Source of the DNA: Bernardetia sp.
GTDB lineage: Bacteria > Bacteroidota > Bacteroidia > Cytophagales > Bernardetiaceae
Direction of reading: 5' to 3'
DNA length: 38,965 nt
NCBI RefSeq assembly: GCF_020630935.1
Contig: NZ_JAHDIG010000049.1
Coordinates: 1 to 38,965 of the forward strand
The notes under the pieces are model-generated. The model was given only the letters and a program-made list of their open reading frames with translations. It searched no databases and was not told the origin of the DNA. Positions within the stretch are counted from its first letter, which is position 1; every line of letters starts with the position of its first letter. Both the position numbers and the translations under genes were made by a program. Positions 6,795-21,029 of this stretch are shown piece by piece.

Positions 6795-7877
6795 ATGATG
6801 AAGCAACTAATAATACTAGACGACGCATTCCAAACGCTAAACGAAGGAAGACAACTTCTTACTCACACTATCGATTTCGAAATTCCTTATTGGAAAAAAC
6901 GAACACACAAAGTACACGTAGATATTCGCATTACAGACCGTTGGCTTATGGTAATCATTGCTATTTTATTGATGATTATTGGACTTCAATGGTGGATTCC
7001 AAGGGCAAGCAACACGACGACACAAATTGATAATATGCTCGTTCAGATGCCTAACAAAAGTAGCGTAATTCCTACTTCTGTGCCAGCAGCCGAACCTATC
7101 AATGATGTTCTTTCTTATATCATGACGCACTTAGAAGAAACGCAATCTGAAATACCACAAACACACCAAGAACAGAGAGACAAATTTTTGGTACAGAAAC
7201 AGCTTCTGATTACTAAATATTTGATAGAGAACAAGGCTTCTCGTTTGGATAAGCTAAAAGATGATGAGCTTTTGAAACTCAATGAAGAAATCACACAACT
7301 TTTTATTGATTTGGTTTTGAATAATGTAAATGCACAAAAACACGTTTATACTTATTTTACGGACAATAAAGACCTCAATAAAATTGAAACTTCATTGATG
7401 GAGCAGGCAAAGTTTCACGTTCCAGCATCTATAAAATTAGCACAGTCAGCCCTAGAAACAGCTTACGGACAGCGCATTGTAGATAATAATTATTTTGGCA
7501 TTAAAGATAAAAATAGAAAAAGCAGTCTTACCACAACAACAGAATATTACACAGCCTTGGAAAAACAAGCTAATAAAAATATTATTATTAGCTCACAACG
7601 AGTTGTCAAGAATGGAAAAACGCTTTATAAGTGCATTGTCAAAGACCATTTTGCAGAATATAATTCGCCATGGCATTCGTTCCGTTCGCACTCTATATTT
7701 TTAAGTACCAACAAACGCTATTCGCCTCTTTTTACAAAAGGTAAAAACTATGAAGACTGGGCAGACAAAATTGGTTCTACAAAGTATGGTGGAGTAGGTT
7801 ATGCAACTTCTCCAATTTATGGCGAACTCTTGAAAAAAATTATCAAACGCTACCACTTAGACCTATTAGATTTTTGA
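6795..7877 (+). CDS. Membrane-anchored glucosaminidase (GH73-type peptidoglycan hydrolase)
   Basis: The C-terminal half (about 205-355) is a glucosaminidase domain of the FlgJ/Auto type, which cuts the glycan strand of peptidoglycan. Its landmarks are PASIKLAQSALETAYGQ with the probable catalytic Glu (E221), the NNYFGIKDKN loop (231-240), AEYNSPWHSFRSHS, and the YATSPIYGELLKKII tail. Residues 50-68 form a transmembrane segment after a cytoplasmic N-terminus of about 48 residues, so the enzyme is anchored in the inner membrane facing the periplasm with a spacer of about 130 residues. Two adjacent ATGs (6795 and 6798) are possible starts. The gene is followed by a strong terminator and has the likely regulated promoter at 6442. 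Confidence 0.88.
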   Translation: MMKQLIILDDAFQTLNEGRQLLTHTIDFEIPYWKKRTHKVHVDIRITDRWLMVIIAILLMIIGLQWWIPRASNTTTQIDNMLVQMPNKSSVIPTSVPAAEPINDVLSYIMTHLEETQSEIPQTHQEQRDKFLVQKQLLITKYLIENKASRLDKLKDDELLKLNEEITQLFIDLVLNNVNAQKHVYTYFTDNKDLNKIETSLMEQAKFHVPASIKLAQSALETAYGQRIVDNNYFGIKDKNRKSSLTTTTEYYTALEKQANKNIIISSQRVVKNGKTLYKCIVKDHFAEYNSPWHSFRSHSIFLSTNKRYSPLFTKGKNYEDWADKIGSTKYGGVGYATSPIYGELLKKIIKRYHLDLLDF

Positions 7878-7915
7878 CATAAAAAAACAACATGGTTTTG
7901 TTTGATAAATAAAAG

Positions 7916-7955
7916 AAAAACGGATTTGAGAAAAATTACTCAAATCCGTTTTTTG
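7916..7955 (+). terminator. Rho-independent terminator of the glucosaminidase gene
   Basis: A perfect 15-bp stem AAAAACGGATTTGAG (7916-7930) and complement (7939-7953) encloses loop aaaaatta and ends in six T. It directly precedes the tandem repeat. Confidence 0.85.
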
Positions 7956-7956
7956 C

Positions 7957-8145
7957 ATTTTTCCTAACGTTAGGAAAATAGCGTAATTCACTTTAAACGG
8001 CTTTTTAGACATTTTTCCTGATAGCAGGAAAATAGCACAGTTAGCTTTAAATGGGCTTTTTAGACATTTTTCCTAACGTTAGGAAAATAGCGTAATTGGC
8101 TTTAAATGGGCTTTTTGTAGATTTTTCCTAATACAAACAAAATAG
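7957..8145. repeat. Tandem repeat, 54-55 bp unit, with conserved hairpins
   Basis: Three full units start at 7957 (54 bp), 8011 (55 bp) and 8066 (55 bp), and a decayed fourth starts at 8121. Each full unit opens with a palindrome: TTTTCCTAACGTTAGGAAAA at 7959-7978 and 8068-8087, and TTTTCCTGATAGCAGGAAAA at 8013-8032. In the middle copy the change from A to G in one arm is matched by T to C in the other, so pairing is kept. The rest of the unit (an AATAGCGTAATT..CTTTAAA..GGCTTTTTAGAC pattern) is also repeated, so this is not a CRISPR array. It lies between a terminator and the promoter of the next gene. Confidence 0.85.
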
Positions 8146-8168
8146 TATATGGACAGTAAACACTAGCT

Positions 8169-8199
8169 TTTGTCCTGCATTTAAAAAAGGCTACATTTG
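8169..8199 (+). promoter_or_regulatory. Promoter of the CvfB-like gene
   Basis: TTTG (8169-8172), 19 bp, TACATTTG (8192-8199) is an exact fit to the Bacteroidota consensus. The start point would be near 8206, giving a leader of about 24 nt. Confidence 0.75.
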
Positions 8200-8229
8200 T
8201 AAACCTATTTATTTAAAAACAAAGAAATT

Positions 8230-9114
8230 ATGCCTATTCAAATTGGTCAATATAATACCGTCAAAATTTTACGCACCACTCCTCATGGTGTTTATGTAGG
8301 AAGCTCGCTTTTAGATGAGGTTTTGTTACCTCAAAAGTATATTCCTCAAGATGCAAAGGAAGGCGATGAGATAGAAGTTTTTGTCTATACAGACACCGAA
8401 GATCGTCCTGTTGCTGTTATTGAAAAACCTATTGCTGTTGTTGGAGAAATTGCAGCTTTAAGGGTAGTAGATATTACTAAATTTGGAATGTTTTTAGATT
8501 GGGGACTGATAGAAAAAGATTTGTTTCTTCCACAAGACGAAATTCCGAAAGGCAATAAAGAAGCAAGAGAAACACAGAAGCCTATTCAAAGAGGAGATTA
8601 TGTATTTGTCAAACTTGCCCTAGACCACAAGACAAATCGTGTGATTGGTTTGGGTAAATTAGGAAGTTTTATAGAGCGAGAAGATATTGATTTGGAAGAA
8701 GATGAAGAAGTTACAGCCATTGTAGGACAAGAAACAGAAATTGGCTATCGTTGCATTGTCGAAAAAGATGGCATTTATTATTATGGTATGCTTTATCATA
8801 ATGAAATTTTTGGACGAAAAAACATACAAGGAAAAAAGCATACTGTTTATGTAAGAAAAATACGTGAAGATGGACGAATAGATTTAAGATTCAGAAAAGA
8901 TGGTTTTGATGGAATAGCTGACCAAAGTAGTATTATTATGCAAAAATTAGAAGAAAACAACGGTTTTTTGCCTATTTCAGATAAAAGCTCGCCTGAGGAA
9001 ATACTAGATTATTTCAATATGAGTAAAAAAACATTTAAAAAATTAATAGGTAATTTATATAGAGAACGTAAAATTAGTATTGATAAAAAGGGTATTCAAA
9101 AAACAAGAGAATAA
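8230..9114 (+). CDS. CvfB-like S1-domain RNA-binding protein
   Basis: The protein matches the CvfB/YitL family: successive S1-like beta-barrel domains (about 5-65, 70-140 and 150-220) and a C-terminal winged helix (about 245-290) with the EILDYFNMSKKTFKKLIGNLYRERKI pattern. Typical family stretches are VDITKFGMFLDWGL (about 79-92) and LPQDEIP. The family length of about 280-300 aa fits. It is a cytoplasmic nucleic-acid-binding protein; in Staphylococcus CvfB influences virulence gene expression, but the role in Bacteroidota is not known. It is monocistronic with its own promoter, right after the tandem hairpin repeat. Confidence 0.85.
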   Translation: MPIQIGQYNTVKILRTTPHGVYVGSSLLDEVLLPQKYIPQDAKEGDEIEVFVYTDTEDRPVAVIEKPIAVVGEIAALRVVDITKFGMFLDWGLIEKDLFLPQDEIPKGNKEARETQKPIQRGDYVFVKLALDHKTNRVIGLGKLGSFIEREDIDLEEDEEVTAIVGQETEIGYRCIVEKDGIYYYGMLYHNEIFGRKNIQGKKHTVYVRKIREDGRIDLRFRKDGFDGIADQSSIIMQKLEENNGFLPISDKSSPEEILDYFNMSKKTFKKLIGNLYRERKISIDKKGIQKTRE

Positions 9115-9393
9115 TATTTGTATTTTGAAATAATTTTATATATTTACGATACATAGAGTATATCTGTTTGTCTAGTGTAGTAAAGAATATCTTCTTTCTA
9201 AATACAAAACAAAATTGCAGATTTATGTTTTTTTGATATAATTTTTTTGTATGCCATGTAATTTTGTGTATATTTCTAAAAATTAGCTCACTCTGACAAT
9301 AAAATTATGTACGGATTTGTCTAATTGCTATTTATCAAACAAACTAAAAAACTCTAAAAAATTTTAGTTCCACTCTAAAGCAGTATAAGAATC

Positions 9394-9933
9394 TTGAACC
9401 TGAATGATTACTATAGAGAAATGTTGGAAGGCGAGGTAATTGTATCGTACAAAGGAGCTCCATCACAATCTCTTTTTGATGGGATTTTGAGTGTGGCAGA
9501 TGAACGTTTAGCTGCCCTTGAACAAAAGTCCAAAATCAGAAAGAAAGTCTATCATATTATGATAGAGGCACTCCAAAATGTATATCACCACACACAAGGA
9601 GAAGGTGTACAAAAATCTGAAAGCCCAGAAACAGTATTATTTGTTCTTTCCAAACATGCGAAAGGATACGAAATTTCTACTGGAAATTATATCCCCACCT
9701 CACTTGTTTCCACTTTACAATCACACATTGAAAGGATAAATCAATCTTCTGCTGAACAAATAAAACAGCTTTATCGTGAGCAATTACACGGTGGAGAAGT
9801 TTCTATAAAAGGGGGAGCAGGCTTAGGAATCATTGATATTGCACGCCGTTCGGGCGAAAAACTCGTCTATTCTTTTGAAGACGCTGGCGAGGACAATTCT
9901 TTTTTTAGTTTGAAAGTAAAAGTTTCGGCTTAA
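9394..9933 (+). CDS. siaB: SiaB-family protein kinase (GHKL fold)
   Basis: This resembles the SiaB/DUF6272 family, GHKL-fold serine/threonine kinases that phosphorylate SiaC. Visible motifs are the N-box KVYHIMIEALQNVYHHT (51-67, with N62) and the glycine-rich G-box KGGAGLGIIDIARRSG (139-154). The annotated start is a TTG at 9394 because an in-frame stop lies at 9376 and no ATG intervenes; the next ATG (9421) would remove the conserved N-terminal helix. It is followed after 13 bp by siaC, so the two are co-transcribed. In Pseudomonas the SiaABCD pathway uses a PP2C phosphatase and a diguanylate cyclase; no cyclase is seen here. Confidence 0.82.
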   Translation: MNLNDYYREMLEGEVIVSYKGAPSQSLFDGILSVADERLAALEQKSKIRKKVYHIMIEALQNVYHHTQGEGVQKSESPETVLFVLSKHAKGYEISTGNYIPTSLVSTLQSHIERINQSSAEQIKQLYREQLHGGEVSIKGGAGLGIIDIARRSGEKLVYSFEDAGEDNSFFSLKVKVSA

Positions 9934-9946
9934 ACAATATATTTGA

Positions 9947-10333
9947 ATGGAAAATTTTTTCTTAGAAGGTACTAATAAGACACCACAACTAGATTTTAAC
10001 TCTAACGAAGGACGATTCCTCATTGCAGGACGCTCCATCCCAGAAAACTCTATTGAGTTTTATAAGCCTCTTTTTGAGTGGTTAGATAATTATGTCAGTC
10101 AAGCAAAATCAAGTACAGTTTTAGATGTAAAATTGGAGTACTTCAATACGAGTTCTTCAAAGTGTTTGGTAGAGATTTTCAGAAAATTAGAAACTCTACA
10201 ACAAAAAAATGATAATGTCTTGATAAACTGGTATTACGAAGAAGATGATGAAGACATGCAAGAGTCTGGAGAAGATTTTCAAGAAATCATAGATGTCAAA
10301 ATTGTCTTGAATGAAATGGAAGAAGAAGACTAA
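9947..10333 (+). CDS. siaC: SiaC-family regulatory phosphoprotein (DUF1987)
   Basis: This small protein has the SiaC/DUF1987 layout: an N-terminal TPQLDFNSNEGRFLIAGRS stretch, PLFEWLDNYV (41-50), and the phosphorylation loop YFNTSSSKCL (65-74). The threonine in that loop is T68, the same position I recall for the SiaB-modified residue of Pseudomonas SiaC. The C-terminus is strongly acidic (EEDDEDMQESGEDFQEI). It acts in the cytoplasm as the substrate of the upstream kinase and presumably switches a partner protein when dephosphorylated. The partner is not encoded beside it. A hairpin terminator follows. Confidence 0.87.
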   Translation: MENFFLEGTNKTPQLDFNSNEGRFLIAGRSIPENSIEFYKPLFEWLDNYVSQAKSSTVLDVKLEYFNTSSSKCLVEIFRKLETLQQKNDNVLINWYYEEDDEDMQESGEDFQEIIDVKIVLNEMEEED

Positions 10334-10368
10334 ATCCTTTTTCTTTGTAAGAGTGTAAAATATTCAGA

Positions 10369-10402
10369 TAGCTATTCTAAAATATAGGATAGCTGTTTTT
10401 TT
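10369..10402 (+). terminator. Terminator after siaC
   Basis: TAGCTATTCTA (10369-10379) pairs with TAGGATAGCTG (10385-10395) using two G-U pairs, and seven T follow. It also overlaps the 3' side of the convergent phosphatase gene's end. Confidence 0.6.
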
Positions 10403-10406
10403 GTAT

Positions 10407-10964
10407 CTAGTCTTTTGTCAGATGAATCAGATACGGAACAGCTTCGATAAGGGAAGCCGTTTCAAAATCTATTAAGGCTTTGTTTTTTATTCTTTCAAAA
10501 GTATTATACTGATTGATAAAGCATGTTTTCATTCCTGCATTGCGTCCAAACTGCATATCTGAAAGACTATCTCCTACAATAACTGAACGCTTAAAGCTAA
10601 TTTCACAAAAATCCTTCTTTGCATCAATCGCCATTCCGATAGCTGGTTTACGACGTGGAGAACCTGTTTTGGCAAGGTCTGGGCAAAAATATATTTTTTG
10701 TATTTGTGGTAACTTTTCTAGCAAAACATTATGAATAACTTCAAGGTCTTTGTCAGTCATGAGTCCTTTTCCAATCCCTTGCTGATTGGTTACTACCACA
10801 ATATTTTCAAAATGTTCTTTCAAAATATCTAAGGCTTCTACTGCCGTTTCAAAAATAGTAAATTCATCTAACGTTTTGACATAATCATTGTCTAGTTTTC
10901 TATTCAAGACACCATCTCTATCTAAAAAAAGTGTCCAGTTATTTGCTCTCTTTTTGTTCTTCAT
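10407..10964 (-). CDS. HAD phosphatase, GmhB/HisB-N type
   Basis: A DDDD-class HAD hydrolase: FLDRDGVLNRK (13-23) with nucleophile D15 and acid D17, VVVTNQQGIGKG (57-68), the lysine in RRKPAIGM (K106 region), and VIVGDSLSDMQFG near 130-143. These are the marks of D-glycero-D-manno-heptose-1,7-bisphosphate 7-phosphatase (GmhB), used in lipopolysaccharide core synthesis. The canonical zinc loop C-x-H...C-x-C is not there: only one Cys (C94) remains in CPDLAKTGSPRRKP, so this is the zinc-less form or a related sugar-phosphate phosphatase. No other heptose genes are nearby. Confidence 0.78.
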   Translation of the reverse strand: MKNKKRANNWTLFLDRDGVLNRKLDNDYVKTLDEFTIFETAVEALDILKEHFENIVVVTNQQGIGKGLMTDKDLEVIHNVLLEKLPQIQKIYFCPDLAKTGSPRRKPAIGMAIDAKKDFCEISFKRSVIVGDSLSDMQFGRNAGMKTCFINQYNTFERIKNKALIDFETASLIEAVPYLIHLTKD

Positions 10965-11060
10965 TTTCTTCGATTAGTCTATTTAATGAGAAATTGTACA
11001 AAAAACACTAACCTTTGTGTGTTTTTTACGTTATCATAATAACAATTACCAAATTTACCT

Positions 11061-11098
11061 AAAAATGCTAAAAAACTTTACTGTTGGATAGCATTTTT
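11061..11098 (-). terminator. Terminator of the ACC deaminase-like gene
   Basis: Read leftward, AAAAATGCTA (11098-11089) pairs with TAGCATTTTT (11070-11061) across an 18-nt loop. It lies about 20 bp after the stop at 11117. A TAAATTTG -7-like element (complement of 11050-11057) just beyond could serve the phosphatase gene. Confidence 0.6.
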
Positions 11099-11116
11099 TT
11101 TATTTGCTTTCTAATT

Positions 11117-12067
11117 TCAGAAAACCCCTCCAGTATGAATCAGTACAATCGTACTTCCTTTTTCAAAAAAATTATCTTTTGCTAACTCTTTTACTGCAAA
11201 AAAGGCTTTTCCCGTATAAATAGGTTCAATTTCAAGCTCATTATTTTGATGAAACTCTTTTATAAACTTTACTAATCGTTCCGATTTTTTAGCATAACCT
11301 CCTTCATGAAAATCTGTATTCAGAATCAGATGACTTAGAGCTGACTGAATTTTGTCTTCATCATTTTCATAAAAATTCTCTAAAAGTTTTTCGATATCCT
11401 CTTTTAAAAAACTCCCTCCTTTTAGTGCAGAAATAGCCAAAACTTTGTTTTTCAAATAATTTTCTTTATTTGAAACAGAATTTAAAATCCCTGCTGCTGT
11501 TCCTCCTGTTCCGATACCGAGTACAAAATAATCAATGTTTTCTTCTATCAAATTAGATGCTATATCGACAATATGACTTGTACCTTTGAGAGCTAATGGA
11601 TTTGAACCACCTTCTGGTATGAGAAAAAAACTGCCAAACTTCTGTTCTAGTTCTTTTAAAAATTGTATATCATTTTTTTCTCTGTATTGGCTTCGTGAAA
11701 TGTAATGCAGTTGCATATTTTGTTCTTTACAAAAGGCAAGTACAGGATTTAGTTCTTTGTGTTCTTCCCCCCTAATAATGGCAATACTCTCAAATCCCAA
11801 CTCTTTAGCAGCAAAAGCTGTTGCTCTCAAATGGTTGGAATATGCGCCTCCAAAAGTAAGTAGCTTTTTCTTGCCTTGTTTTTTGGCTTCTAGTAGATTG
11901 TAATAGAGTTTGTAGAGTTTGTTTCCTCCAATATGTTTGTGTTGAGCATCCAAACGAAGTACCTTTACACTTAAGTTTTTTTCATTAAAGGTTTTGTTTT
12001 CCCACTCTGAAATAAAAGCAGGGGAAAGAAATTTCTCAAATAAGGAGGGAAAGGGATAATTTAGCAA
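11117..12067 (-). CDS. ACC deaminase / D-cysteine desulfhydrase family PLP enzyme
   Basis: A fold-type II PLP enzyme of the 1-aminocyclopropane-1-carboxylate deaminase / D-cysteine desulfhydrase family. The PLP lysine lies in KHIGGNKLYKLYYNL (K50 most likely). The next stretch, TFGGAYSNHLRATAF (71-85), holds the serine-asparagine pair that binds substrate. EGGSNPLALKG and the phosphate-binding GIGTGGTAAG loop (about 184-193) follow, and the C-terminal STIVLIHTGGVF is typical. Length (316 aa) fits. In Bacteroidota most such genes are more likely desulfhydrases than true ACC deaminases, so I do not assign a symbol. The gene is monocistronic. Confidence 0.87.
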   Translation of the reverse strand: MLNYPFPSLFEKFLSPAFISEWENKTFNEKNLSVKVLRLDAQHKHIGGNKLYKLYYNLLEAKKQGKKKLLTFGGAYSNHLRATAFAAKELGFESIAIIRGEEHKELNPVLAFCKEQNMQLHYISRSQYREKNDIQFLKELEQKFGSFFLIPEGGSNPLALKGTSHIVDIASNLIEENIDYFVLGIGTGGTAAGILNSVSNKENYLKNKVLAISALKGGSFLKEDIEKLLENFYENDEDKIQSALSHLILNTDFHEGGYAKKSERLVKFIKEFHQNNELEIEPIYTGKAFFAVKELAKDNFFEKGSTIVLIHTGGVF

Positions 12068-12185
12068 AGTAAAATGGAATTAGGATAAGTGATATTTGAA
12101 ATAAAAATACAGATAAAGTCGTGTTTTTTATCTATTTTGTAAATATGAAAAATAAATTTAGTTTTCTAAATCAAATTATACCTCT

Positions 12186-12602
12186 ATGATAAAAGTAATC
12201 TATCAAGGCAAATTACGCACAGAAGCCACTCATATTAGTTCACAAAATAAATTACTTACCGATGCTCCAAAAGATAACCACGGAAAAGGCGAAACATTTT
12301 CTCCAACAGATTTAGTATGTAGTTCTCTTGCTTCTTGTCAGATGACTGTTATGGGAATTTTAGCAGAGCGAGAAGGAATAAATTTGGAAGGTTTAGAGGC
12401 GTATGTAGAAAAAATAATGGTAGATAAACCTCGCAGAATCGGACGTATCAAGATTACTTATACTTGTCCAGATAGCTTAGAGCTTTCAGTAAAAGAGCAT
12501 GAAAAATTGCATCGCACAGCCATGACGTGTCCAGTTGGGCTTAGCTTACATAGCGATATTGTACAAGAAGTAGAGTGGGAAAATTTGCATCTGAAAGCAT
12601 AA
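12186..12602 (+). CDS. OsmC family peroxiredoxin-like protein
   Basis: OsmC/Ohr-type fold, a cytoplasmic thiol peroxidase of organic hydroperoxides. The two active-site cysteines are in SSLASCQMTVMG (C51) and AMTCPVGLSLH (C115), in the usual order. The 138-aa length and the YTCPDSL segment match the YhfA-like/OsmC general subfamily rather than Ohr. It lies 14 bp upstream of the SpoIIE-type phosphatase gene, so the pair is probably co-transcribed. That links it loosely to stress signalling, by inference only. Confidence 0.9.
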   Translation: MIKVIYQGKLRTEATHISSQNKLLTDAPKDNHGKGETFSPTDLVCSSLASCQMTVMGILAEREGINLEGLEAYVEKIMVDKPRRIGRIKITYTCPDSLELSVKEHEKLHRTAMTCPVGLSLHSDIVQEVEWENLHLKA

Positions 12603-12616
12603 AACCAATCCTTTGA

Positions 12617-15358
12617 ATGTTCTACAAATTTCTCTCTACTTTTCTCATTTATTTAGTTGCCATTGCATTTCAAAATGTAATGGCTCAACGTTCTGCAAAA
12701 AACGATATTGCACAAAAAAAGTTAGACAGTCTTTGGCAAGTGCATGAAAAAACACAAAAAAATGATATAGAAGATACTTTAAAAATAAATACCCTTTTAG
12801 ATATTGCAACACAATATCTTGACATAAAAAGTGATTCTGGGCGTATTTTAGCAGAAGTTGCTATTCAGAAATCAGAAGAAGAGCTATATTTTAGAGGAAC
12901 AGCCAGCGCAGTCAGAGTGATTGGCAAATACCATCAGCAAAAAAGTAATTATGATTCAGCTATTCATTTTTTTAGAGCTTCTTCTGACCTTTATCAAGAA
13001 ATTGGAGATTCAATTACTTATTCTCTTGTCTTGAACGAACTTGCAGGAATATATTATGTACAAGGAAACTACCAGCGTGCCTTAGAAAATTTATTGGTAG
13101 CCTTAGGAATACAACAGCGTTACGACGACAAACTCAAAGTAGCTCGTGCGCTCAATAATATGGCTCTGATTTATAAACGAAATCATCAATACGATAAAGC
13201 CATACAAATGCACAAGCAAGCTATTTTGATGAAGGAAGAACTCAATGATAGCACAGGAATTGTAACAGGAAATCTCAATATTGGTAGTGCTTATTCTGAA
13301 CAGGGTAATCATCAGCAGGCTCTCTTCTATTTGGAAAAAGGATTGCCTTTAGCTCTCCAATTAGGAAATGATTTCCTTACTTGTCAGTATTATATCAGTT
13401 TGGGGATGAATATAATGCAAAGAGATTCCTTGAGAGACTCAAACTCTAAAGAAAAGACTTTTTCATACCTTATGAAAGCAGAAAAGATGATAGAAAATTT
13501 AGATAATCCACATCTTTTATTTCATGTTCATTTTGGAAAAGCTCAATATTTTTTCTTTACCAATGACTATACAAAAGCTAAAGTTTTAGCAAAAAAAGCC
13601 TTAGAATTAGCTCAAAAACTGGGATTGAGACAAAATATTGAAAATGTATATCATCTTCTATCACAAATTTATAAGAAAGAAAAGAATTTTGAAGCCTCCA
13701 CAGACTACTTAGAAAGACATATAGCTCTTACAGACTCTTTAAAAAAAGAAGAAAATCATAATGAAATCAAACGCCTTCAAGCTGTATTTGAGAGTGAAAG
13801 ACAAGAGCAGATTATTTCTACACTAAGAGAACAAAAAAAATTGCAAAAATCTGAAATTGCACGTAAAGAAATTTGGAACTACTCACTAGCAACAGGGACA
13901 ATCTTACTTTTTATCATTGCTATACTTATCTTCATACAAAAGAGAGAAAGAGAACAACAAAACAAACAAATTTTAGAAAAAAGTACAGAAATCGGTCAGC
14001 AAAAAGAAGAAATCACACAACAAAACAGCCAACTCAAAGAAACTTTTTCACGCCTTTCTATTCTCTCTGAAATTGGAAGAAAAATAACAGCTACAATGGA
14101 TGAGAATGCACTCATTTCAATTATTAAAGAAAGTATCGACTCCATTATGTTGGTCGATGGATTTGGTATCGGCGTTTATAATCCTCATTCACAAGCCATT
14201 GAATACAGTAATTTTATAGAAAACGGAGAGGTTTTGCCTTTCCATGCAGAGTCAATAACAGAAGAAAATAAAAGTCTCTCGGTACAGTGTTTTTTAAATG
14301 ATAAAGAGTATTTTACTGTGGATGTCAGAAAAGAATATTTTCAAAAATACCAAAAACATATTAGTCCTATTATTGGAGAGATTCCCCAAACGGCATTTTT
14401 TATTCCTCTTCGAATCCGTGAACGTCCCATTGGAGTCATGACGATTCAGAGTTTTAAGAAAAATCCTTATACAGAGGATAATTTGGCTTTGCTTCGCAAC
14501 CTTTCTACATATGTTTCTATTGCTGTGGCGAATGCTAATGCCTACAAGCTGATTCATAATAAGAACCAAAATATTATGGACAGTATGCGTTATGCCAAGA
14601 CCATACAAAATGTTCTTACACCTAACGAAAAAACTATTTTAAATAACTTTTCTGAATATTGTCTGATTTATGGAGGAAAAGACATTGTAAGTGGCGATTT
14701 TTATTGGCTTACAACTATTGATAAATACACGTTTATCGCTGTGGTAGATTGTACAGGACACGGAATACCGGGAGCTTTCATGTCTATGATTGGAAATATG
14801 TTGTTAGAGGAGCTTATCAATCAAGAAAAGCATTTGCAGCCCTCAAAAATATTGAGACTTATGCATGAACGCATTAGAAAACTATTGAAACAAGATAAAA
14901 ACACAAAACAAAGAAATAGTTCGAAAATTAATAAAGACGGAATGGATATAGTTCTGTGTAGAATCGAACAAAAAACGACTCGTATGCATGAAGTAACCTA
15001 TTCTGGAGCAAAACGTCCTCTTTGGTATGCAGAACCTACACAAAACGAAATTCAAGAAATTGGAGCTACAAGATGTTCCATAGGAGGAAAACAAAGAGAA
15101 AAAATACGACTGTTTGAGGAAGATATTATTTGGCTACCTACTGGCTCTTCTCTATACTTAACCACTGACGGATTTGCCGATCAACACTCTCCACAAGGAG
15201 AGCGCATTGGAAGTCATAACTTAAAATTATTTCTCAATACTATCTTAAAGCAAGATATGGCAACTCAACAAGACCTATTAATTGACTTTCTAAAGGCACA
15301 CCAACAAGGAGCAGAACAGCGAGACGACATTACATTTTGGGGAGTAAAGTTAGGATAA
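12617..15358 (+). CDS. TPR-GAF-SpoIIE transmembrane PP2C-type phosphatase
   Basis: A 913-aa signalling protein. In order: signal peptide (1-23, ending VMAQ); a TPR solenoid (about 90-375, with AxxxLNNMALIYKRNHQYDKAI and GNLNIGSAYSEQGNHQQAL units); a transmembrane helix (about 422-440); a Gln/Glu-rich coiled coil (440-478); a GAF domain (about 480-640); a linker SMRYAKTIQNVLTP; and a SpoIIE/PP2C phosphatase domain (about 665-913). The phosphatase keeps its metal-binding acids in VSGDFYW, VVDCTGHGIPGAFMS, TTDGFADQ and the terminal RDDITFWG. The periplasmic TPRs would sense and the cytoplasmic domain dephosphorylate a partner. SiaC, 2.3 kb upstream on the same strand, is a plausible substrate. 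Confidence 0.92.
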   Translation: MFYKFLSTFLIYLVAIAFQNVMAQRSAKNDIAQKKLDSLWQVHEKTQKNDIEDTLKINTLLDIATQYLDIKSDSGRILAEVAIQKSEEELYFRGTASAVRVIGKYHQQKSNYDSAIHFFRASSDLYQEIGDSITYSLVLNELAGIYYVQGNYQRALENLLVALGIQQRYDDKLKVARALNNMALIYKRNHQYDKAIQMHKQAILMKEELNDSTGIVTGNLNIGSAYSEQGNHQQALFYLEKGLPLALQLGNDFLTCQYYISLGMNIMQRDSLRDSNSKEKTFSYLMKAEKMIENLDNPHLLFHVHFGKAQYFFFTNDYTKAKVLAKKALELAQKLGLRQNIENVYHLLSQIYKKEKNFEASTDYLERHIALTDSLKKEENHNEIKRLQAVFESERQEQIISTLREQKKLQKSEIARKEIWNYSLATGTILLFIIAILIFIQKREREQQNKQILEKSTEIGQQKEEITQQNSQLKETFSRLSILSEIGRKITATMDENALISIIKESIDSIMLVDGFGIGVYNPHSQAIEYSNFIENGEVLPFHAESITEENKSLSVQCFLNDKEYFTVDVRKEYFQKYQKHISPIIGEIPQTAFFIPLRIRERPIGVMTIQSFKKNPYTEDNLALLRNLSTYVSIAVANANAYKLIHNKNQNIMDSMRYAKTIQNVLTPNEKTILNNFSEYCLIYGGKDIVSGDFYWLTTIDKYTFIAVVDCTGHGIPGAFMSMIGNMLLEELINQEKHLQPSKILRLMHERIRKLLKQDKNTKQRNSSKINKDGMDIVLCRIEQKTTRMHEVTYSGAKRPLWYAEPTQNEIQEIGATRCSIGGKQREKIRLFEEDIIWLPTGSSLYLTTDGFADQHSPQGERIGSHNLKLFLNTILKQDMATQQDLLIDFLKAHQQGAEQRDDITFWGVKLG

Positions 15359-17907: not shown

Positions 17908-18699
17908 TTAATTAGCTAAAAAATTCATAACAACTTTAAAGAATTCTTCTGGTGCTTGTGCGTGTACCCAATGCCCTGCCTCTTCTATGGTATGAACTTT
18001 TGCATTAGGAAAGAGTTTTTTTATCATGGGAATATCTTTTTCTTGTATATAACGAGACTCTCCTCCATCAATAAACAAAATTTCCTTTTCATTTGCCTCC
18101 ACAGATGTTGGTATTTGCTTGTTCGTAGTAACAGCTCCTCCTATTTTATGTATAGATTTTTCCAAGACAGGCAAATTCATTTTCCACTCAAAACCATCTT
18201 TTGTGCGAGCCAAATTTTTTAATAAGAACATTCTTGTTCCTTCTTCATCTACATATTCTCCAAGTTTTGTATCTGCATCTCCTCTATTTTTTAAAGTATC
18301 TATATCAATTGCTTTCAAACCCGATAAAATATTTTCATGATGAGAAATATTATATTCTCTAGGAGCAATATCTACCACTATCATTTTGTCAAATCCGTTA
18401 GGATAGCTTAGAGCATACTGCATAACTACTTTACCTCCCATAGAATGCCCAATGAGCAATGGGTTTTTAAGCTGATGTTCTTCAATAAATATTTGCAAAT
18501 CATTAGCCAACACGATATAATCCATTTCTACATGATGTGGAGAACGTCCGTGGTTGCGTTGGTCTATCAAAAATACTTGGTAGTGTTCAGCAAACTGACG
18601 CCCTAAGGTAAGCCAGTTATCAAGTGAACCAAATACACCATGTAAAATAAGTAAAGGCTGTGCGTTTGAACTTCCTAATTCCTTGTAGTTGAGCTTCAT
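17908..18699 (-). CDS. Alpha/beta hydrolase, YbfF-like esterase
   Basis: A 263-aa cytoplasmic alpha/beta hydrolase. The oxyanion-side LILHGVFGSLDNW (17-29), LIDQRNHGRSP (44-54), the nucleophile elbow GHSMGG (84-89, S86) and the late catalytic His in EAGHWVHAQAPEEF (about H243) are all present, with LFIDGGES as the likely acid strand. The order and spacing match the YbfF/acyl-CoA esterase branch. The physiological substrate is unknown. A TATCTTTG -7 element (complement of 18769-18776) may drive it, although its -33 box is poor. Confidence 0.88.
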   Translation of the reverse strand: MKLNYKELGSSNAQPLLILHGVFGSLDNWLTLGRQFAEHYQVFLIDQRNHGRSPHHVEMDYIVLANDLQIFIEEHQLKNPLLIGHSMGGKVVMQYALSYPNGFDKMIVVDIAPREYNISHHENILSGLKAIDIDTLKNRGDADTKLGEYVDEEGTRMFLLKNLARTKDGFEWKMNLPVLEKSIHKIGGAVTTNKQIPTSVEANEKEILFIDGGESRYIQEKDIPMIKKLFPNAKVHTIEEAGHWVHAQAPEEFFKVVMNFLAN

Positions 18700-19228
18700 A
18701 ATCTTGATTTAGTATAAATTTTGATTGATTCTAAGAGACAGTTATTGCCTCAGTTTTCCTTTATAAAACAAAGATAACTCTTTATAACTTATGACCTATC
18801 CATAACCTATTTCTTTTAAACAACGAATATTGAAATTTTCAAGAGAGATTTCTGCACGATAAATTCAGTTTTTTCTCTATAAAAACTCATAAAATAGGTT
18901 AATTCAATCCTTGAATAATTCAAAAAATAAATTTTCAAAAGTTTTTTTGGTGTAACATTAGAAGTTAATTAACACATTTTCAGTATGTTACACCTCATCA
19001 AAAGCTATTTTAGAGAGTATAAGTAAAAAAAGTCTAGTTCAATAGAAAAATAAAAATTTGCCTTAAATTTTGTATATGAAGCTATAAATCACATTTTTTA
19101 CATCAAAAACCATATCATTTTGAACAAAACAGATTTTTACAAATTTAATTTTGAGTAAATTATCTTTTACAGATAACTCAAGTAATAAACTAAGGTTATT
19201 TAGTATTTGATTCTGCAACCTTATACTC
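18700..19228. other. Gene-poor AT-rich spacer
   Basis: About 530 bp between the divergent hydrolase and the small peptide gene. I see no protein gene; the only rightward frame of note is 13 codons long and starts inside the inverted repeat. The stretch holds that inverted repeat (18949-18994) and many short direct AT motifs. An upstream regulatory region or non-coding RNA is possible but not shown. Confidence 0.45.
18949..18994. promoter_or_regulatory. 10-bp inverted repeat with inner palindrome
   Basis: GGTGTAACAT (18949-18958) and ATGTTACACC (18985-18994) are perfect complements. Between them lies a second palindrome, GTTAATTAAC (18964-18973). The nested symmetry suggests a protein-binding site or a structured RNA; no T tract follows, so it is not a terminator. 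Confidence 0.4.
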
Positions 19229-19236
19229 TATCTTTG
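19206..19236 (+). promoter_or_regulatory. Promoter of the 55-codon peptide gene
   Basis: TTTG (19206-19209), 19 bp, TATCTTTG (19229-19236) is an exact consensus fit. Transcription would start near 19243 and give a leader of about 120 nt. A 12-bp palindrome AATTGTACAATT (19254-19265) lies just after the start point and could be an operator. Confidence 0.7.
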
Positions 19237-19362
19237 AGTATATAAAAACAAGGAATTGTACAATTTGATTCACACCTCCTTCATTTTATCACCTAATTAG
19301 ATTATTCTAATACAATTTACTCAACTAAATTTAATTATCTACACTCTGAAAATTTTTACGCT

Positions 19363-19530
19363 ATGAACACTTTAAATCAAATCAACACCAACGAAAATTG
19401 CAATGACCTTTTCAACGAACTAGAAAGAGAACTCCACATCGAAGAATTAGAGGAAAGACTGGAAATGACAACTGATGGAGATGGAGATGGAGATGTAGAA
19501 CCTCCAAAGCTACCTTGGCCACTAGGTTAA
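19363..19530 (+). CDS. 55-aa acidic peptide, RiPP-precursor-like
   Basis: An ATG at 19363 opens 55 codons that end at the TAA of 19528-19530. The peptide has a polar N-terminus (MNTLNQINTNENCNDLF), a strongly acidic helical segment (ELERELHIEELEERLEM), a (Asp-Gly)3-Asp stretch made by a GATGGA repeat at 19474-19491, and the tail VEPPKLPWPLG. The order of charged amphipathic leader, Gly-rich hinge and short hydrophobic Pro/Trp tail is like many ribosomal peptide-product precursors, but I cannot place it in a family. It has an exact promoter and its own terminator, which supports a real gene. No maturase, protease or exporter gene lies nearby. The single Cys (C13) is in the N-terminal part. Confidence 0.65.
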   Translation: MNTLNQINTNENCNDLFNELERELHIEELEERLEMTTDGDGDGDVEPPKLPWPLG

Positions 19531-19596
19531 ACTCTTGTTGAGCTATTCTATTTATACACTTTGATATTACAATATGAAATTTATTCTGTAACCAAG

Positions 19597-19625
19597 CCTT
19601 TTCCGATGTGGAAAAGGTTTTTTTT
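19597..19625 (+). terminator. Terminator of the 55-codon gene
   Basis: CCTTTTCC (19597-19604), loop gatgt, GGAAAAGG (19610-19617), then eight T. It lies 66 bp after the small gene's stop and about 135 bp before lysA. Confidence 0.82.
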
Positions 19626-19760: not shown

Positions 19761-21029
19761 ATGTTAGAATTCGCTCAAGACGAATATCGTATTGGAGGAG
19801 TTTCGGCTCTCTCGCTTTCAGAAAAGTATGGAACACCTTTGTATGTATATGATGCAAAGAAAATGGAAAAACAATACAAACAGCTTTGTAAGGCGTTTTC
19901 TAAGACTAAGATGAAAGTACACTATGCTTGTAAGGCACTTACGAATATTTCTGTCTTGAAATTCTTTAAATCTTTAGGAGCAGGACTAGATACAGTATCT
20001 ATTGAAGAAGTACAACTTGGTTTATTGGCTGGCTTTGAGCCATCTGATATTCTCTTTACTCCTAACTCTGTATCACTACAAGAAATCAATGAAGCTGTTG
20101 AGTTAGGTGTACAAGTAAATATTGACAGTATTTCTGTATTGGAAGAGTTTGGACATAAGTGGGGAGGAAAAATTCCTGTTTGTATTCGTATAAATCCACA
20201 CTTGATGGCTGGAGGGAATGCAAAAATTTCTGTTGGACATATAGATTCAAAATTTGGCATTTCACTCTATCAAATGCGCCACGTTTTGCGTATTGTAGAT
20301 GCCTATAAAATGAAAATTACTGGGCTTCACATGCATACAGGCTCTGATATTTTGGATGTAGAAGTATTTTTGAGAGGACTAGACATTCTGCTAGAAACAG
20401 CAGAAGATTTTCCAGACTTAGAATATATTGATATGGGAAGTGGTTTTAAAGTAGCTTATAAAGAAAACGATATTACGACCAATATTGAAAAATTAGGAGA
20501 GCAAGTTTCAGAACGTTTCAACCAGTTTTGTACAGAGTATGGAAGAGAACTAACACTTGTTTTCGAACCAGGGAAATTCTTAGTAAGTGAAGCAGGTACT
20601 TTTTTAGCCTCTGTAAATGTCATCAAAACTACACCAACAGCCGTTTTTGTAGGTTTAAACTCTGGTATGAATCACTTGATTCGTCCAATGTTTTATGATG
20701 CTTATCATCACATTGTTAATATTTCAAACCCTACTGGCATATCAAGAGTTTACAATGTAGTGGGATATATTTGCGAAACAGATACTTTTGGGGCAAATCG
20801 CAAGTTATCAGAAGTTAGGGAAAATGATGTTCTTGCTTTTAAGAATGCAGGAGCATATTCATTTATGATGTCTTCTAATTATAACTCTCGTTTCCGTCCT
20901 GCCGAAGTATTGATATATGAAGGAAAAGATTATCTCATCAGAAAAAGAGAAACATTAGAAGATATTACAAAAAATCAGATTGAAATGGATTTTAAGAATA
21001 TTTCCATTGAGCAAGAAATTATTTCATAA
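19761..21029 (+). CDS. lysA: Diaminopimelate decarboxylase
   Basis: LysA converts meso-diaminopimelate to lysine with PLP in the cytoplasm. The alanine-racemase-type barrel carries the PLP lysine in VHYACKALTN (K58), the HMHTGSD loop (190-196), the glycine-rich phosphate site DMGSGFKVAY (224-233), and EPGKFLVSEAG (269-279). The partner-active-site cysteine is in YICETDTF (C338), which matches the CESxD-like element of the family. Length 422 aa is normal. It stands alone with a strong terminator; no other lysine gene is in the window. Confidence 0.94.
   Translation: MLEFAQDEYRIGGVSALSLSEKYGTPLYVYDAKKMEKQYKQLCKAFSKTKMKVHYACKALTNISVLKFFKSLGAGLDTVSIEEVQLGLLAGFEPSDILFTPNSVSLQEINEAVELGVQVNIDSISVLEEFGHKWGGKIPVCIRINPHLMAGGNAKISVGHIDSKFGISLYQMRHVLRIVDAYKMKITGLHMHTGSDILDVEVFLRGLDILLETAEDFPDLEYIDMGSGFKVAYKENDITTNIEKLGEQVSERFNQFCTEYGRELTLVFEPGKFLVSEAGTFLASVNVIKTTPTAVFVGLNSGMNHLIRPMFYDAYHHIVNISNPTGISRVYNVVGYICETDTFGANRKLSEVRENDVLAFKNAGAYSFMMSSNYNSRFRPAEVLIYEGKDYLIRKRETLEDITKNQIEMDFKNISIEQEIIS

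What the first reader, a model, noticed from the sequence alone, without database searches (positions are those of the whole stretch)
19206..19625. Unlisted 55-aa peptide gene with its own promoter and terminator, resembling a peptide-product precursor
A short gene is framed by an exact promoter (TTTG-N19-TATCTTTG) and a clear terminator, which argues it is real. The product has an acidic helical N-terminal part, a Gly-Asp hinge built from a GATGGA repeat (19474-19491) and a Pro/Trp tail (PPKLPWPLG). This order looks like leader, hinge and core. No modifying enzyme is near, so it could be a stand-alone signal peptide, a distant partner of a maturation locus, or an unrelated small protein. The promoter is followed by a 12-bp palindrome, AATTGTACAATT.
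Basis: partly seen in the sequence, partly recalled or inferred. Interest (0 to 1): 0.65.

Follow-up and report, generated by a model that had tools for sequence, protein, structure and literature searches.

The report
Orphan peptide precursor with distant protease
A tiny bacterial gene looks like the precursor of a small processed peptide, and the membrane protease that probably processes it sits elsewhere in the same genome, an unusual split arrangement that could make a short proline-rich signal or weapon peptide.

Summary
The 55-aa gene (19363-19530, +) is real: it occurs in 7 of 7 genus genomes examined (own plus 6), with conserved promoter, terminator position and frame (pN/pS 0.11 in the leader-like part, 1.03 in the Asp-Gly linker, 0.37 in the PPKLP tail). 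No modifying enzyme was recognised beside it. Its acidic part, ending IEELEERLEMTT, matches the leader of small ORFs in other Bacteroidota that sit near an HExxH M50-like membrane protease, several in RiPP-like clusters. A profile from 10 such precursors at seven protease loci finds the seven genus peptides and nothing else among 5,612 frames. A protease of that family is encoded in 6 of 7 genus genomes, unlinked to the peptide (E 5e-56 or lower with a profile free of genus rows), and was not found in 4 sister genomes that lack the peptide. In a 395-genome class sample, leader-type small ORF and protease occur in the same four genomes. LanB (4 of 7) and YcaO (1 of 7) cannot serve all seven; an unidentified radical SAM/SPASM protein (5 of 7) is not excluded. 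Best reading: a RiPP-type precursor processed by a protease encoded at a distant locus. Cleavage, export and function are inferred. The 12-bp palindrome and GATGGA repeat are not conserved.

The parts
19175..19189 (+). conserved upstream element AACTCAAGTAATAAA
   Evidence: one perfect copy per genome, at this locus, in 6 of 7 genus genomes; G004 has a diverged copy
19206..19236 (+). Bacteroidetes-type promoter TTTG-N19-TATCTTTG (type recalled)
   Evidence: aligned in 7 of 7 genus genomes
19254..19265 (.). palindrome AATTGTACAATT, not conserved in full
19363..19530 (+). 55-aa precursor-like peptide gene (stop included)
   Evidence: homologues in 6 of 6 other genus genomes; one copy in own genome
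19411..19473 (+). leader-type segment, residues 17-37 (F.ELE.EL..EELEERLEMTT), strongest constraint
   Evidence: 17 of its 21 columns invariant in seven rows; the other invariant columns are M1 and PPKLP; pN/pS 0.11; matched by profiles of precursors from outside the genus
19474..19500 (+). variable Asp-Gly linker, residues 38-46
   Evidence: pN/pS 1.03
19501..19527 (+). tail PPKLPWPLG; PPKLP invariant, end varies (W, M, Y, G, WPIG, WPLG)
19594..19625 (+). intrinsic terminator (stem plus T-run)
   Evidence: fold -13.7 kcal/mol; counterparts in relatives by eye

Best explanation
The gene encodes a RiPP-type precursor: an acidic leader ending in IEELEERLEMTT, an unconstrained spacer, and a short C-terminal product containing PPKLP. 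The leader is recognised by an M50-like (site-2-protease-like, HExxH) membrane protease encoded at an unlinked locus (own genome G000:C1, about 83772-85046; 424 aa), which cuts the precursor and releases the tail at or through the inner membrane. The product may be only proteolytically processed; a further modification is not excluded. Shown: the gene is under selection, the leader is homologous to precursors that lie near this protease family elsewhere, and the protease is in 6 of the 7 genomes. Inferred: binding, cleavage, cut site, export and any role as signal or weapon.
For: Conservation: homologues in 6 of 6 other genus genomes, E 1.7e-18 to 6.2e-9; leader pN/pS 0.11; the lysA gene is next to it in 6 of 7 (lysA by TIGR01048). 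Leader homology: in Flavobacterium reichenbachii (45% identity over residues 4-47) the ORF follows a radical SAM/SPASM gene, has an M50-like gene two genes on, and split LanB on the other side. Of 16 non-genus order genomes with a protease-profile hit, 14 keep HExGH; 12 of these 14 have a leader-type small ORF in the fetched locus, often in tandem. A profile from 10 precursors at seven protease loci that the motif searches had not found recovers the seven genus peptides (E 2e-8 to 8e-6; next frame E 4) among 5,612 frames; 20 precursors give the same seven. Partner: A3, which holds no genus row, hits 6 of 7 genus genomes at E 5.1e-56 or lower. Co-occurrence: in family f1, protease in 6 of 7 with peptide and 0 of 4 without (Fisher 0.015); order sample 11 of 12 genomes with exact-motif small ORF versus 11 of 378 others (p 1e-14); class sample, the same 4 of 395 (protease threshold 1e-20). 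Precedent: the review PMC10885120 (passages) reports the M50 EpeP as sufficient for EpeX production and thought to cleave and export.
Against: The two genes are unlinked in the genus, and the peptide's promoter pattern is not found in the 200 bp or less before the protease gene. G005 has the peptide but no protease hit (92% complete, 460 contigs). The tail lacks the Cys common in the other precursors. A radical SAM/SPASM protein of 340 aa, 88-90% identical in 5 of 7 genus genomes and missing in the two other assemblies (92% and 84% complete), matches no NCBIfam model over its cut-off and is not excluded as a modifier. A leader-binding (RRE-type) domain in the protease could not be shown: no usable Pfam or PDB match, no hhalign match to the rSAM N-terminus, poor single-sequence model of the L019 homologue (pLDDT 46.7). 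The daptide and YydH/LiaK protease models match well below their cut-offs, as does Pfam M50 (23 bits, cut-off 27). Some counts are partly circular: A4 holds the proteases of G132, G247, G488, G633 and G698, found through the motif; outside the genus only G394, G630 and G735 are independent among motif-found genomes. Genomes are related, so Fisher values are too small.
Confidence: 0.64

Rival explanations
1. The product is further modified by an unlinked enzyme, so that the PPKLP tail is a cross-linked or otherwise altered RiPP; the protease acts after it.
For: In other genomes the same leader type is found with several enzyme types: radical SAM, split LanB, an arginase-family protein, a squalene-hopene-cyclase-like protein. 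An unidentified radical SAM/SPASM protein is in 5 of 7 genus genomes; its matches include peptide maturases, all below cut-off, best the tungsten-cofactor oxidoreductase maturase TIGR04317 at 122 of 380 bits.
Against: LanB in 4 of 7, YcaO in 1 of 7, squalene-hopene-cyclase-like family in 0 of 7 with the control genome G630 found, though G630 is a row of that profile. The radical SAM gene is not near the peptide. ATP-grasp and other classes were not searched.
Confidence: 0.22
2. An intracellular small protein (regulator or protease adaptor) whose helix descends from or resembles the leaders but leads to no peptide product.
For: Acidic stretch, no partner gene beside it, one copy, seven of seven genomes, no Cys in the tail, genes unlinked.
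Against: The protease tracks the peptide inside the family (6 of 7 versus 0 of 4), and the tail is conserved separately across a free linker.
Confidence: 0.11
3. Chance: ELEERLEM is a common helix and the link with the protease is coincidence.
For: Three of 15 genomes with the exact DNA motif carry it in other contexts.
Against: Those three lack the protease at E 1e-10; the reversed-pattern control showed 0 in the rows listed; a leader-like regex hits 1 of 465 small ORFs in nine background stretches (the finding itself) against 23 of 1124 in 16 protease loci.
Confidence: 0.03

Closest known systems
Epipeptide system (EpeX with M50 protease EpeP; YydH-type)
   Same: Small precursor plus an M50-type membrane protease thought to cut and export it (PMC10885120, passages); the own-genome protease matches the YydH/LiaK model at 1e-14, below cut-off
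   Different: No epimerase gene beside the peptide or protease was recognised, genes unlinked, different core
Daptide HExxH intramembrane protease (NF041824)
   Same: Best NCBIfam match of the own-genome protease, E 2.6e-28
   Different: 99 bits against a cut-off of 300; the other daptide genes were not searched
Flavobacterium reichenbachii locus L019 (radical SAM, split LanB, M50-like gene)
   Same: Same leader motif; protease of the same family
   Different: Clustered; core with Cys and Ser; two kinds of modifying enzyme nearby
Bacteroidetes class I lanthipeptides with LxLxKx5L...GG leaders (PMC7268733, passages)
   Same: A locus of this kind is in the same genome (L044)
   Different: The 55-aa peptide has neither that motif nor a conserved GG, and its tail has no Cys
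Pearlin scaffold peptides with M50 proteases TglG/TmoG
   Same: M50 protease acting on the C-terminus of a peptide (PMC10885120, passages); here the end also varies after an invariant PPKLP
   Different: The LanB-like ligase expected there (recalled) has no counterpart by PF04738 in 3 of 7 genus genomes

Membership tests
M50-linked ELEER(L/F)E leader precursors (family as described here) | leader recovered by a profile of members from outside the genus | tested here: met
   E 2.1e-7 for the window peptide with 10 precursors; 8.5e-5 with 20
M50-linked ELEER(L/F)E leader precursors (family as described here) | protease of the family in the genome | tested here: met
   own genome E 7.8e-58 with A3, which holds no genus row; 6 of 7 in genus
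M50-linked ELEER(L/F)E leader precursors (family as described here) | precursor and protease genes in one locus | tested here: not met
   different contigs or distant places in all 6 genus genomes with both
RiPP | post-translational modification by an encoded enzyme | tested here: inconclusive
   no enzyme found in all seven; SPASM protein in 5 of 7 not excluded; not all classes searched
Class I lanthipeptide | Cys with Ser/Thr in the core, LanB partner | tested here: not met
   no Cys in the tail in 7 of 7; LanB in 4 of 7, in own genome in a locus with two GG-leader precursors
Epipeptide | radical SAM epimerase partner | tested here: inconclusive
   epimerase family not searched as such; only the SPASM domain was
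C39 / double-glycine peptide | conserved GG before the core | tested here: not met
   alignment of 7; C39 genes not searched
RiPP protease with leader-recognition (RRE) domain | PqqD-like winged-helix domain | tested here: inconclusive
   without usable match; low-confidence model of a homologue

The most novel reading that the evidence does not exclude
The M50-like protease is the one recurrent partner of an apparently undescribed Bacteroidota leader family (ELEER(L/F)E), and in this genus the system is reduced to precursor plus protease at two loci, yielding an unmodified Pro-rich peptide whose invariant PPKLP carries a species-variable end (W, M, Y, G, WPIG, WPLG), as a pheromone with strain types would.
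Probability: 0.22. Interest if true: 0.75.

Novelty: new variant of a known kind. Interest (0 to 1): 0.55.

Why it matters
Peptide products are usually searched for around their enzymes; a precursor far from its processing gene is missed. Here a leader motif and a protease profile link the two halves, give a testable pair of genes, and point to a leader family in Bacteroidota found with several unrelated modifying enzymes. No NCBIfam model matches the window peptide or the ten other precursors tried at E below 0.1.

Tried and rejected
Own LanB locus as partner: set aside, it has its own GG-leader precursors and LanB was not found in 3 of 7 genus genomes. YcaO in G001 only; squalene-hopene-cyclase-like family absent in the genus. 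The SPASM radical SAM protein: I first took it for a MoaA-like enzyme by eye; the scan does not bear that out, so it stays open. Phage records: no match. Shared promoter of peptide and protease: not seen. The upstream element AACTCAAGTAMTAAA: one perfect copy per genome in 6 of 7, and fewer sites at up to one mismatch than the reversed control in each of the seven genomes, so no sign of a regulon. RRE domain: not shown; model of the L019 homologue too poor for a fold search. Papers: no hit for ELEERLEM; the one hit for ELEERFE is a viral protein paper; by titles and abstract starts, searches listed no paper on this leader with M50. PMC12703449 (passages) describes peptide arginases with another precursor type, DD(I/V)LF.

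Dropped before counts: in the order sample G559 and G026 (motif inside long ORFs) and G757 (start-less frame); in the class sample 8 of 12 genomes with a profile match, because the match lies in a frame of 277 codons or more. G647 and G038 match the protease profile weakly and show no HExGH. L117 and L128 have the protease but no clear leader ORF. The L118 ORF, counted among the 12, stops right after LEMT; in L129 the ORF is 6 kb from the protease.

Changed after re-checking: confidence 0.68 to 0.64, first rival 0.20 to 0.22, second 0.10 to 0.11, third 0.02 to 0.03, novel case 0.25 to 0.22, because the SPASM protein is conserved in 5 of 7 and unidentified.

Full report
What is there. ORF 19363-19530 (+) gives MNTLNQINTNENCNDLFNELERELHIEELEERLEMTTDGDGDGDVEPPKLPWPLG. 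It lies between a reversed alpha/beta-hydrolase-type gene (17908-18699; best NCBIfam match an esterase, below cut-off) and lysA (19761-21029; TIGR01048, 377 bits, cut-off 298). Neither NCBIfam nor Pfam matches the peptide, and the genome has one copy.

Is it real. All 6 other genomes of the genus searched have it. lysA is the neighbour in 5 of these 6 and the hydrolase gene in 4 of 6 (G001, G003, G004, G005). No modifying enzyme was recognised among nine window neighbours or ten neighbours in relatives; the rest were not annotated. One public record, the contig behind L018 and G005, is titled Flexibacter sp.. Summed over the 21 pairs, pN/pS is 0.40 overall, 0.50 for residues 1-16, 0.11 for 17-37, 1.03 for the linker and 0.37 for the tail. 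The promoter boxes align in all seven and a terminator-like stem keeps its place with changed letters (by eye). The full palindrome is particular to this genome and the GATGGA repeat lies in the unconstrained linker.

What it resembles. A genome-contig scan found an ORF in Flavobacterium reichenbachii with the same ELEERLEM. It follows a radical SAM/SPASM gene; one gene further lies an M50-like gene; split LanB (PF04738, PF14028) is on the other side: a RiPP-type locus. A profile of the genus peptides against 395 genomes of the class and a back-translated pattern against 390 genomes of the order gave further small ORFs: G394, G247, G132 in the class; G735, G488, G633, G630, G698 in the order. 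Their cores differ and often hold Cys. An HExxH protein was read near six of these loci, the Flavobacterium one included, and aligned (A3).

The partner. A3, which holds no genus sequence, finds one strong homologue in 6 of 7 genus genomes, E 1.2e-61 to 5.1e-56: in the own genome a 424-aa protein (L087:8773-10047) with HEIGH and DGYWIFSD; the other five are 63-71% identical to it. It lies beside a ParA/VirC1-type ATPase gene and far from the peptide. Its nearest named models are the daptide and YydH/LiaK RiPP proteases, below their cut-offs; the A4 profile reaches the archaeal site-2 protease 3b4r (E 2.5e-4). G005, a 460-contig assembly, has the peptide but only a chance-level hit.

Linkage. 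With A4 (6 genus and 6 other proteases) 22 of 390 order genomes match at E 1e-10: 6 of 7 in the genus, 0 of 4 sister genomes of the family (none with the peptide), 16 elsewhere. Of these 16, 14 keep HExGH. Twelve of the 14 have a leader-type small ORF in the fetched locus: L116, L118-L123, L125-L127, L129, L130, up to five per locus. In 19 compared loci the protease family is in 18 and no other family is in more than 6, but 16 of the 19 were chosen by the protease. In the class sample the protease at E 1e-20 occurs in G000, G132, G247 and G394 only, the same four that had leader-type small ORFs; G132 and G247 were in the profile, G394 was not, and its two genes lie on two short contigs. Fisher values are and ignore kinship.

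Direct test of leader homology. A profile from ten precursors at seven protease loci that the motif searches had not found recovers the seven genus peptides and nothing else at E below 4, among 5,612 frames from the window and genus loci. They were picked by a leader-like regex or by eye from small ORFs near the protease, so the test is not wholly blind; the regex hits 1 of 465 small ORFs in nine background stretches, the finding itself.

How it may work. The leader docks on the membrane protease, which cuts and releases the tail. For epipeptides a review says that the M50 EpeP is sufficient for EpeX production and is thought to cleave and export it (PMC10885120, passages). LanB (4 of 7), YcaO (1 of 7) and the squalene-hopene-cyclase-like family (0 of 7) cannot serve all seven peptides. 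One radical SAM/SPASM protein of 340 aa is conserved in 5 of 7 (88-90% identity), is missing only from the two other assemblies, both incomplete, and is not identified by NCBIfam: it could be unrelated or could modify the peptide. Proteolysis alone is the simplest reading, not a shown one. ATP-grasp, C39 and other classes were not searched. Binding, cleavage, export and function are not shown, and an RRE domain in the protease could not be demonstrated.

Novelty. M50 proteases in RiPP pathways are known; an unlinked precursor-protease pair with this leader was not met in my paper searches, which cover open-licence PubMed Central only and of which I saw listings.

Noticed in passing
L044 (G000:C66:1-20000), 7620-14489: Class I lanthipeptide-like cluster in the own genome: LanB, LanC, luciferase-like protein and two 57-aa GG-leader precursors of the LxLxKx5L type by eye.
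   Followed up: partly
L119, L121, L126, L127: ELEERFE-type precursors (1 to 5 per locus) with the protease, an arginase-family protein (PF00491 in L126 and L127; same family by BLAST in L119 and L121), a protein that looks like a TonB receptor (by eye) and, in L126, an AMP-binding ligase: perhaps ornithine-bearing, lipid-linked peptides.
   Followed up: partly
L050, L120, L122, L130, L136: The protease lies next to a 523-714 aa protein; those of L050, L122 and L136 match the squalene-hopene cyclase C-terminal domain, the others were linked by BLAST. L050 also has a P450, with a relative in L122; L136 has a gene resembling IPP isomerase by eye.
   Followed up: no
L118, next to the protease gene at 8903-10042: Precursor-like ORF that stops directly after the leader (ELEERLEMT), perhaps a decayed precursor (read in L062).
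   Followed up: no
19175-19189: AACTCAAGTAATAAA upstream of the promoter: one perfect copy per genome in 6 of 7 genus genomes, at this locus.
   Followed up: partly
L048 6049-9744 (G004); L018 6931-10626 (G005): A 1231-aa sensor histidine kinase gene lies next to the peptide gene in G004; a gene of the same length lies about 3 kb downstream in G005 (not scanned). Possibly a sensor for the peptide.
   Followed up: no
L026-L030: A 340-aa radical SAM/SPASM protein conserved at 88-90% identity in 5 of 7 genus genomes, not over any NCBIfam cut-off.
   Followed up: partly
L138 (G001): A YcaO gene in one genus member only.
   Followed up: no
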